Virus record (IMG/VR): IMGVR_UViG_3300033149_004223
Coordinates: 1-29,056 of that record
Reading direction: 5' to 3' (one strand)
Source: a virus
DNA: 29,056 nt
Shown one piece after another: positions 6,180 through 19,797 of this stretch. Position 1 is the first letter of the stretch, and each line of letters starts with the position of its first letter. Made by a program: the position numbers and the translations under genes. The notes under the pieces were generated by a model, which was not told the DNA's origin, ran no database searches, and saw only the letters and a list, made by a program, of their open reading frames with translations.

Positions 6180-6180
6180 T

Positions 6181-6296
6181 CTCGTTTGTCTCGTCTGTCT
6201 GGTCTGCCTGGTTTATCTCGTCTGTCTCGTCTGTCTGGTTTTTGGTCAACCAAATGACAGGATCAACCAGATAGACGAAATAGACCAAATCAGAAC
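6181..6296. repeat. 9-bp tandem repeats with inverted copies
   Basis: Bases 6181-6243 are seven consecutive 9-mers close to CTCGTCTGT or CTGGTTTGT. Bases about 6258-6296 carry the same unit family in the reverse orientation (GATAGACGAAATAGACC), so the transcript could fold into a long imperfect hairpin. The array fills the whole space between the gp36-like and gp37-like genes and takes over the stop region of one and the ribosome-binding region of the other. Related 9-mers occur at 14,990-15,018. Confidence 0.85.
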
Positions 6297-18294: not shown

Positions 18295-18441
18295 TTAATC
18301 ATTTGACCTCCGACCTCCGACAGCCGACCTCTGACAGCCGACTTCCGACATCCGACCTCCCGCTGCTTGGCAAAGGGCAACCACGAAAATCCCCGCAAAG
18401 ACCCCGATGAATATACCCAGTCCAAATGCTATCCAGGTCAT
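18295..18441 (-). CDS. Small membrane protein with repeat-encoded C-terminus
   Basis: This encodes 48 residues from ATG 18441, one base after the stop of the upstream zinc-ribbon gene and close to GGAGAGGAGG. The N-terminal half is a membrane helix (MTWIAFGLGIFIGVFAGIFV). The last 20 residues (GGRMSEVGCQRSAVGGRRSN) are encoded by the heptamer repeats described at 18,303-18,358 and look like read-through of non-coding repeats rather than designed protein. An original stop may have been displaced by repeat growth. Confidence 0.55.
   Translation of the reverse strand: MTWIAFGLGIFIGVFAGIFVVALCQAAGGRMSEVGCQRSAVGGRRSND
18303..18358. repeat. Eight tandem heptamers, CCGACNN
   Basis: Eight consecutive 7-bp units: TTGACCT, CCGACCT, CCGACAG, CCGACCT, CTGACAG, CCGACTT, CCGACAT, CCGACCT. 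The first five bases are conserved while the last two vary (CT, AG, TT, AT). They encode the end of the small membrane protein on the minus strand. Confidence 0.9.
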
Positions 18442-18442
18442 C

Positions 18443-18622
18443 TTAACCCTCCTCTCCCTTGTAAAACACCTCGTCATAGCGCGGCGGAGGATCCGCCGGC
18501 TCAAGCGCCCGGATCCATGTTGACAGCCAGATCCAATTATCGTCCCGCCCGCACACCGGGCAGGCTTCCCCTGTAAACAGCTCATCACACTGAATACACA
18601 CCTTCGCCTTGCCAATCTTCAC
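18443..18622 (-). CDS. Small zinc-ribbon protein
   Basis: This encodes 59 residues from GTG 18622, preceded by the strong ribosome-binding site AAAGGAGG. Cysteines are arranged C-x2-C (CIQCDELFTG) and C-x2-C (CPVCGRDD), a compact zinc ribbon, followed by an aromatic strip (NWIWLSTWIRAL) and an acidic/Pro C-terminus. It is the first gene after the pentamer array, so its ribosome-binding site follows the end of the array directly. It may bind nucleic acid or protein; no named family is recognised. Confidence 0.7.
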   Translation of the reverse strand: MKIGKAKVCIQCDELFTGEACPVCGRDDNWIWLSTWIRALEPADPPPRYDEVFYKGEEG

Positions 18623-18639: not shown

Positions 18640-19063
18640 ACACAGAGGTCCGCGGTGCCAAAACCGTAGTTCACCGCACCTAGCTAAACCCAAGCGGGGC
18701 GTTACTTTACCTTACCCTTACGGAAATCCGCGGTACCAAACCCTAGCTAAAACGAGCTTTGCCCTACCAGACCACAACATCGCATTGCCCTGCTGTACCG
18801 CTACTGCAAAAAATCCAGCTCCGCGCCACTGTGCCACAACCTTACGCTACCTTGCTAAACCCTCACTAGGCATTACGAAATTACGCCTGCGCGGAATCGC
18901 ACCAAACTGCGCTTGTGCCGGGCCTTACTTTACTCTGCCCTGCTGAGCCAAACCATAACCGGGCATCGCGTCGCGTCACCCCAACCACACAGCAAAGAAC
19001 ACCGCAATGCCGGGGCCGAACACAACAAGGCCCTACCACACCGCCACCTCGCGCACCGTGGCG
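18640..19063 (-). repeat. Degenerate 5-bp quasi-repeat array (GYNNN)n, non-coding
   Basis: About 420 nt directly after the stop of the RAMP-like gene show a strong 5-base rhythm on the minus strand: G followed by C or T (sometimes G), then three variable bases, with occasional six-base steps. Examples: GC-AGG-GC-AGA-GT-AAA-GT; GC-AAT-GC-GAT-GT; GT-AGC-GT-AAG-GT. I count roughly 75-80 steps. It has no convincing gene on either strand, in an operon whose other genes mostly overlap or abut. It ends just before the ribosome-binding site of the zinc-ribbon gene and should be part of the early transcript. Confidence 0.85.
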
Positions 19064-19675
19064 TCACGACACCTCCACGATCTCAAACCGGCCATACCCG
19101 CCTGAGCCCCGCCACTGGCCCAGGCCCACATACTGCCCATAGTCCAGCATCTGCTCCACGGCCACGCGGTCAATGCCGGCCTTGTTCTTGAGAATGCGCA
19201 CGCTAAAACTAATCTCCGTTCCTGCATCTACATAGTCGCTCCGACACACGGTCACACGAGGCCCTTTGGCCGTCATGGTCCTCAGAGGACGTTCCAGGCA
19301 TCCATCCGGCTCACTTTTTCCCAGCGGGATCTGCCGCGGATCAATGAACACCACCAGGTCGATCCATTTCTTGTATGCCGCTATCTTGTCGAGGGCGCCA
19401 GCCGCCATGCACACCTCACATGCGCTCTTGAGAAAGCCCTTGACCATATAGTTGAAAATAAAGATCCCCTGCCCATTGCGATGGAATCCGGTCCAGCCCT
19501 TCTCTTCCACCTCTTCCACGCTCTCCACTTCTTCGTCTCCCAGCTCAGGCTCCGGGGCCTTGCTCGCCACAAACCGGCTGTACACCTCCGGATCCTTGGG
19601 CACGGTGCCGAGCATGGGCTCTAACAATCTGATTTTTACGTCAAATTTTTCTTCTAGTTCTGCCAGTCTTTTCAT
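19064..19675 (-). CDS. Phage protein with RAMP/Cas7-like hallmarks
   Basis: This encodes 203 residues. ATG 19675 is chosen because AGGAGG lies five bases upstream; a longer frame exists but overlaps the previous gene. The start is MKRLAELEEKFDVKIRLLEP. A central segment, NYMVKGFLKSACEV (about residues 79-92), resembles the RAMP-family motif where Lys-Gly is followed by a helix (KGxhR). The C-terminus, GLGQWRGSGGYGRFEI (about 183-198), resembles the glycine-rich loop of RAMP/Cas5-6-7 proteins. Similar proteins occur, as I recall, in clostridial phages without assigned function. An RNA-binding role is an inference; its gene is followed at once by the pentamer array. Confidence 0.65.
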   Translation of the reverse strand: MKRLAELEEKFDVKIRLLEPMLGTVPKDPEVYSRFVASKAPEPELGDEEVESVEEVEEKGWTGFHRNGQGIFIFNYMVKGFLKSACEVCMAAGALDKIAAYKKWIDLVVFIDPRQIPLGKSEPDGCLERPLRTMTAKGPRVTVCRSDYVDAGTEISFSVRILKNKAGIDRVAVEQMLDYGQYVGLGQWRGSGGYGRFEIVEVS

Positions 19676-19797
19676 GACGCCTCCTTTTCTCTCAAGATTT
19701 TCAGCGCTGTCTGGATAATACCGCCCAAAGCCACCAGACACAGCGCGGGCCCCAGCACGGGCCAGGCGAAATTAATGAGGTCTATTACCGTTTCCAT
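19672..19797 (-). CDS. Small membrane protein, 41 aa
   Basis: ATG 19797 follows CAGGAGGG, and the stop overlaps the RAMP-like start (ATGA). The product, METVIDLINFAWPVLGPALC then LVALGGIIQTALKILREKEA, is one hydrophobic helix with a charged C-terminus. Coupling to the RAMP-like gene suggests co-expression. The function is unknown; it is too short for family assignment. Confidence 0.65.
   Translation of the reverse strand: METVIDLINFAWPVLGPALCLVALGGIIQTALKILREKEAS

What the first reader, a model, noticed from the sequence alone, without database searches (positions are those of the whole stretch)
18640..19063. A ~420-nt non-coding array with a 5-base rhythm inside the early operon
Read in the direction of transcription, the sequence is a chain of GY (sometimes GG) every five bases with three variable bases between, and occasional six-base steps. 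It is not a normal tandem repeat: the three-base slots differ from unit to unit while the two-base frame is kept over about 75-80 steps. Random drift would erase such a pattern, so the rhythm is probably maintained, as though a protein reads one unit per five to six bases or the variable slots carry information. It starts at the stop of a RAMP-like gene and ends at the ribosome-binding site of a zinc-ribbon gene.
Basis: partly seen in the sequence, partly recalled or inferred. Interest (0 to 1): 0.9.

Follow-up and report, generated by a model that had tools for sequence, protein, structure and literature searches.

The report
Phage guide-RNA array beside Cas7-like gene
A Mu-like phage carries a 420-base repeat with a five-base beat beside a gene for a Cas7-like RNA-binding protein; it is almost certainly the guide-RNA store of a VIPR system, a kind of phage-borne, CRISPR-related, RNA-guided weapon first described in a 2026 preprint.

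Summary
Read on the minus strand, 19063-18640 has a sharp spectral peak at 5.18 bases, about three times the maximum of 200 shuffles. It parses into 83 units G-Y-N-N-N, with a regular 6-base unit (an extra G) about once per six units. The upstream gene (19675-19064) is a RAMP/Cas7-fold protein: AlphaFold pLDDT 92.5, and the 50 listed PDB fold matches are all CRISPR effector complexes. At least 424 IMG/VR stretches encode relatives. Of 144 loci examined, 131 carry the same rhythm within 400 nt of the gene, although neighbouring genes differ. This matches VIPR (Viral Interference Programmable Repeat; PMC13142463, 2026 preprint): a phage Vipr RAMP plus vrRNAs of GGY/NN pentamers that recognise DNA non-contiguously. 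Phage SUSP1's Vipr gene belongs to PHROG 4652, to which the window protein is a remote but significant relative. The window type differs from SUSP1's: three variable bases per unit instead of two, a 6-nt unit every ~6 units, and long arrays with no tail seen. Two related phages carry both types, each with its own array grammar. No natural target was established; slot statistics are consistent with three target bases per five-base unit. New member of a known kind.

The parts
18640..19063 (-). Guide-RNA (vrRNA) array: about 83 units G-Y-N-N-N, 14 of them six bases long (GYNNNG)
   Evidence: Period 5.18, power 12.9 versus shuffle maximum 3.95; parse; same rhythm next to the gene in 131 of 144 related loci
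19064..19675 (-). vipr-like gene: 203-aa RAMP/Cas7-fold protein. By homology the start is the ATG at 19675; the open frame runs up to a GTG at 19741
   Evidence: AlphaFold2 pLDDT 92.5; Foldseek top hits type VII Cas7, Csm3 and Cas7-11, best E 6.6e-9; PHROG 4652 E 1.2e-4, the PHROG of SUSP1 Vipr
18443..18622 (-). 59-aa zinc-ribbon ORF directly after the array; a neighbour, probably not part of the system
   Evidence: No relative of it next to other family members; only weak Pfam zinc-ribbon similarity

Best explanation
The array and the RAMP-like gene upstream form a VIPR system of a Mu-like phage. The early operon is transcribed through the gene and the array. The array RNA is bound by Vipr subunits, one per five-base unit, which hold the constant G-Y (GGY at the six-base units) and expose the variable bases. 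Segments of roughly 10-16 units act as guides. Their variable bases pair with double-stranded DNA of a competing phage or satellite, about three target bases per five-base unit, and the bound complex blocks transcription there. Shown here: the rhythm, the fold, the conserved gene-array pairing, and remote homology to SUSP1 Vipr. Shown in the preprint for other Viprs: RNA binding, the non-contiguous code and repression. Inferred here: that the window's copy is expressed and works the same way, the guide length, and the nature of the target.
For: Rhythm. Protein: profile search against PDB best hit type VII Cas7, E 3e-4; AlphaFold pLDDT 92.5; the 50 listed Foldseek matches, of 160 at E<=0.001, are all CRISPR effector complexes. 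Link to experimentally tested VIPR: SUSP1 gene ALH47069 matches PHROG 4652 at 1.4e-96 and the window protein matches it at 1.2e-4; hhalign of 62 relatives against SUSP1 Vipr E 1.8e-4 with the glycine loop aligned. That ALH47069 is the Vipr is my reading from its place between the vrRNA repeats and its RAMP-like C-terminus. Pairing: 131 of 144 loci have the rhythm within 400 nt of the gene, against 0.4% of windows more than 1.5 kb away. The pair moves between unrelated phages: other window genes have almost no relatives beside other family members. Array read with the G strand on the coding strand of the gene in 15 of 15 arrays. Slots: trinucleotide residuals correlate 0.81 with those of phage genes; cross-unit pair statistics fit a target step of 3 best. 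Substitution rate: anchor G 0.093, slots 0.139-0.169. Within-array duplications shift by at least 52 nt, i.e. 10 or more units, in line with the 9-16 repeats per vrRNA of the preprint. Two related phages carry a SUSP1-type Vipr with a canonical GGY/NN array as well as the window-type pair. Mechanism: PMC13142463.
Against: No natural target was established. No 3' tail or Rfam RNA was found and the array RNA folds no better than shuffles, whereas SUSP1 vrRNAs have a structured tail. No accessory (vap) gene was recognised. The unit is GY/NNN rather than GGY/NN. Nothing here shows transcription. The supplement of the preprint could not be read, so the VIPR type cannot be assigned.
Confidence: 0.88

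Rival explanations
1. The array acts as DNA: its period of about 5.16 is half of a B-DNA turn, so proteins bind the duplex on both faces, as in a partition, origin or packaging site.
For: Mean period 5.14-5.20 in most loci, close to 10.4/2; the six-base steps keep the phase.
Against: The G strand is always the coding strand of the gene; phase is kept only by the interval between six-base units, not locked beyond that; the second VIPR type in L044/L049 has period about 4.9 with four-base units; the partner protein has an RNA-binding RAMP fold.
Confidence: 0.05
2. The array RNA is a decoy or regulator of the Vipr-like protein or of host CRISPR complexes (anti-CRISPR RNA or autoregulation) and the slots carry no target information.
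For: The array lies in the 3' part of the same operon; no target was found.
Against: Slots have the oligonucleotide statistics of natural DNA; kilobase-long, turning-over arrays are unnecessary for a decoy; the related VIPR systems are shown to be guides (PMC13142463).
Confidence: 0.05
3. A decaying tandem repeat or a coding remnant without function.
For: Units differ from one another and no tandem repeat finder reports it.
Against: The rhythm is kept in distant relatives at 33-41% protein identity; G anchors change less than slots; no open frame spans the array.
Confidence: 0.01

Closest known systems
VIPR systems (Viral Interference Programmable Repeat), e.g. Escherichia phage SUSP1, KT454805; preprint PMC13142463
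   Same: Phage-borne single RAMP protein of about 20 kDa with glycine loop; adjacent non-coding pentamer array on the coding strand; conserved G(G)Y with hypervariable slots; remote but significant sequence relation (PHROG 4652; hhalign E 1.8e-4)
   Different: Unit GY/NNN instead of GGY/NN; a six-base unit about every six units (mean step 5.16) where the SUSP1 arrays read here keep 5.0; uninterrupted arrays of about 80 to 600 units; no tail or vap recognised. The preprint mentions related consensus motifs and staggered arrays, so this type may be in its supplement, which I could not read
Canonical GGY/NN VIPR in phage loci L044 and L049
   Same: Same phages carry it about 3 kb (L044) or about 1.2 kb (L049) from a window-type pair; array next to its own Vipr in L044
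   Different: Vipr closer to SUSP1 (phmmer E 3e-7); array punctuated by four-base GGCA units and period about 4.9
Cas7 and Csm3 backbone proteins of type III and type VII CRISPR (PDB 9j9e, 8yhe, 6xn3)
   Same: RAMP fold with glycine-rich loop; oligomer on a guide RNA in those systems
   Different: About 14% identity; six-base spacing on the guide, contiguous spacer, CRISPR array with identical repeats, several cas genes; none of these here

Membership tests
VIPR | RAMP-fold Vipr protein with RRM core and glycine loop | tested here: met
   AlphaFold pLDDT 92.5, Foldseek E 6.6e-9 to type VII Cas7; G-loop GLGQWRGSGGYGRF conserved in relatives
VIPR | Homology to an experimentally tested Vipr | tested here: met
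   PHROG 4652: window E 1.2e-4, SUSP1 Vipr E 1.4e-96; hhalign E 1.8e-4, probability 49%. Remote but consistent
VIPR | Adjacent intergenic array of pentamers with constant G/Y and hypervariable slots | tested here: met
   conserved pairing in 131 of 144 loci
VIPR | Strict GGY/NN consensus | tested here: not met
   Base before GY is G in only 34% of five-base units. Not a defining feature of all types: the preprint allows a 'related consensus'
VIPR | vrRNA with structured 3' tail (type II) | tested here: inconclusive
   No fold above shuffles, no Rfam hit, no tail seen by eye; other types may lack it
VIPR | vap accessory gene | tested here: inconclusive
   Window neighbours have no relatives beside other family members; vap sequences of the other types could not be read
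VIPR | RNA expressed and bound by Vipr; DNA target repressed | not testable with these tools
   Needs experiments
VIPR | Slots match DNA of competing phages | tested here: inconclusive
   No rule above control in 4.6 Mb, both strands summed; one suggestive in-frame match, 23 of 24 bases, score 19.7 versus control maxima 17.9-18.7
CRISPR-Cas | Identical repeats with spacers, adaptation and other cas genes | tested here: not met
   No tandem repeat at the locus; genes assigned in the flanks are Mu-like phage genes

The most novel reading that the evidence does not exclude
The window represents a VIPR type with its own array grammar: five-base units with three informative slots (GY/NNN) that read three target bases each, and a six-base GGY unit about every six units that acts as punctuation (a guide boundary or a turn of the protein filament), the counterpart of the four-base GGCA unit in GGY/NN arrays.
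Probability: 0.35. Interest if true: 0.75.

Novelty: new member of a known kind. Interest (0 to 1): 0.6.

Why it matters
VIPR is proposed as the ancestor of CRISPR and uses a non-contiguous guide code. This locus adds a large clade: at least 424 relatives in IMG/VR and more in Clostridia, plus a few Synergistes, Coriobacteria and other genomes. Its arrays are much longer than the tested ones and follow a different unit rule. Two Vipr types with two array grammars in one phage give a natural test of what the protein reads. Decoding it could show which competing phages are attacked and extend the programmable code from two to three bases per unit.

Tried and rejected
Coding remnant, classical tandem repeat and CRISPR array were rejected. 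Mu-specific function was rejected because the pair occurs in unrelated phages. DNA phase locking as the main reason was rejected. Target search under many rules (which slots are read, target step 2-6, six-base unit counting 0 or 1 extra) against 2.6 and then 4.6 Mb (both strands summed): no rule clearly above unit-shuffled controls. Two excesses fell away on inspection: low-complexity matches for slots 1-2, and array-to-array matches at step 5. BLAST of decoded arrays against 50,697 phage records: best E 0.02. Decoded Porcincola array against 299 family genomes: hits in different genes and frames, so chance. In-frame stop-codon depletion in decoded slots was weak and ambiguous. The zinc-ribbon gene as an accessory partner was rejected for lack of conservation.

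Full report
WHAT IS THERE. The window is a 29-kb IMG/VR virus record of a Mu-like phage: MuA-, MuB-, Gam- and GemA-like genes lie on the minus strand. The finding lies in that early operon. On the minus strand, 19063-18640 has one dominant spectral peak at 5.18 bases, power 12.9, against a maximum of 3.95 in 200 dinucleotide shuffles scanned on a coarser grid, where the array itself scores 8.5. G autocorrelation peaks at 5, 10, 16, 21 and 26. The best parse gives 83 units, 68 of five and 14 of six bases, with G at 89% of anchors and a pyrimidine next to it. The six-base units mostly read GYNNNG, so that the next unit begins GGY. They occur about once per six units, more evenly than shuffled steps, without long-range locking beyond that interval.

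THE PROTEIN. The gene upstream (19675-19064, 203 aa) has no Pfam or NCBIfam match. A profile of 65 relatives finds type VII Cas7 in the PDB at E 3e-4 and Csm4 at 0.011. AlphaFold with 62 relatives gives pLDDT 92.5, and Foldseek returns CRISPR effector complexes (type VII Cas7, Csm3, Cas7-11) in all 50 listed matches, out of 160 at E<=0.001. The best viral match is a predicted 'Cas system-associated RAMP superfamily protein' of a siphovirus.

THE PAIR IS CONSERVED. Relatives were fetched from IMG/VR (424 related stretches in the last scan, best 80 kept), GTDB genomes (62 loci, mostly Clostridia prophages, few from Synergistes, Coriobacteria, Verrucomicrobiota, Saccharibacteria and others) and INPHARED (four human-gut scaffolds). 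A 5.08-5.24 rhythm lies within 400 nt of the gene in 131 of 144 loci, against 0.4% of windows more than 1.5 kb away; at a stricter threshold it is downstream in 98, upstream in 40 and on both sides in 12. Several exceptions are cut by contig ends; in the near relatives L002/L094 the array lies about 650 nt further downstream. Arrays have a median of 98 units and reach 616. In 15 arrays tested the G strand is the coding strand. Neighbouring genes differ (SSB, primosomal, RecT-like, helicase and others), and only two loci show any relative of another window gene, so gene plus array is a module that travels between phages.

WHAT IT IS. A 2026 preprint (PMC13142463) describes VIPR: a phage RAMP protein, Vipr, and vrRNAs of alternating GGY/NN motifs, 9-16 repeats plus a tail. 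NN bases recognise double-stranded DNA with one skipped target base per unit, and targets are competing phages, satellites and prophages. Seven types exist, some with a related consensus or with staggered, overlapping vrRNAs. I read the SUSP1 genome: its vrRNAs are strict five-base repeats next to ALH47069. That protein matches PHROG 4652 at 1.4e-96, and the window protein matches the same PHROG at 1.2e-4. hhalign of our family against ALH47069 gives E 1.8e-4 (probability 49%) with the glycine loop aligned, while the neighbouring gene gives nothing. That ALH47069 is the Vipr gene is my reading of the locus; the preprint text does not give the accession. Fold, remote homology, array form, position and phage setting agree, so I file it as VIPR.

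HOW THIS TYPE DIFFERS. In the window only 34% of five-base units have G before GY, so the unit is GY/NNN rather than GGY/NN. The regular six-base unit is its second mark: its extra G changes least of all between related arrays (0.043 per site, against 0.093 for anchor G and 0.139-0.169 for slots), and breakpoints between related arrays lie slightly nearer to six-base units than random points (8.3 against 9.8 nt, P 0.003; a modest effect, random points resampled). Within-array duplications are shifted by at least 52 nt, about 10 units or more, compatible with guides of 9-16 repeats. Loci L044 and L049 carry a second Vipr, related to SUSP1's at E 3e-7, and a canonical GGY/NN array punctuated by four-base GGCA units, period about 4.9. 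The two protein types thus go with two array grammars in one phage. I infer, not show, that four- and six-base units are punctuation of guides.

DO THE SLOTS CARRY INFORMATION? Slot trinucleotides deviate from independence as phage-gene trinucleotides do (r 0.81 over all frames, lower for the codon frame alone). Within a unit the three slots behave as adjacent bases. Between five-base neighbours slot 4 to slot 4 fits genomic distance 3 (0.77), slot 2 to slot 4 distance 5 (0.77) and slot 4 to slot 3 distance 2 (0.63); other pairs are ambiguous. Summed, a target step of three bases per unit fits best, as in the published code. A direct search for targets failed: no rule exceeded controls. One candidate is notable: eight units shared by arrays L194, L195 and L237 spell a 24-base match (23 of 24, the one mismatch at a wobble base) in frame inside a tail-fibre-like gene (my reading of the sequence) of another phage that carries the same system. 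Its score of 19.7 against control maxima of 17.9-18.7, after many rules were tried, is suggestive only.

VERDICT. The locus is a new member of a known, very recently described kind, probably of a type with its own unit rule. What remains open is expression, the exact code of this type, the role of the six-base units and the targets.

Noticed in passing
L044 2-1000; L049 2136-2861 with array about 240-560: A second, SUSP1-related Vipr gene and a canonical GGY/NN array with regular four-base GGCA units, in the same phages that carry the window-type pair.
   Followed up: partly
L002 5612-6270 (also L094): In the closest relatives of the window gene (87% identity) about 650 nt of non-coding sequence without clear five-base rhythm separates gene and array.
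   Followed up: no
L037 4661-8580: Array of more than 600 units, nearly 4 kb, much longer than any vrRNA described in the preprint text.
   Followed up: partly
window 6180-6241: Nine-base tandem repeat (TCTCGTCTG) between structural genes; unrelated to the finding.
   Followed up: no
window 18305-18360: Seven-base tandem repeat (GACCTCC) at the end of a small ORF two genes downstream of the array.
   Followed up: no
L007 4623-5037 and L049 about 1145-2166: A protein with many short Gly/Ser/Ala-rich repeats encoded near the pair; relatives in eight loci; function unknown.
   Followed up: no
L152, L153 (Porcincola intestinalis) and L154: Related prophages whose arrays share long decoded segments but differ in others: a natural series for studying guide turnover in a cultured species.
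   Followed up: partly
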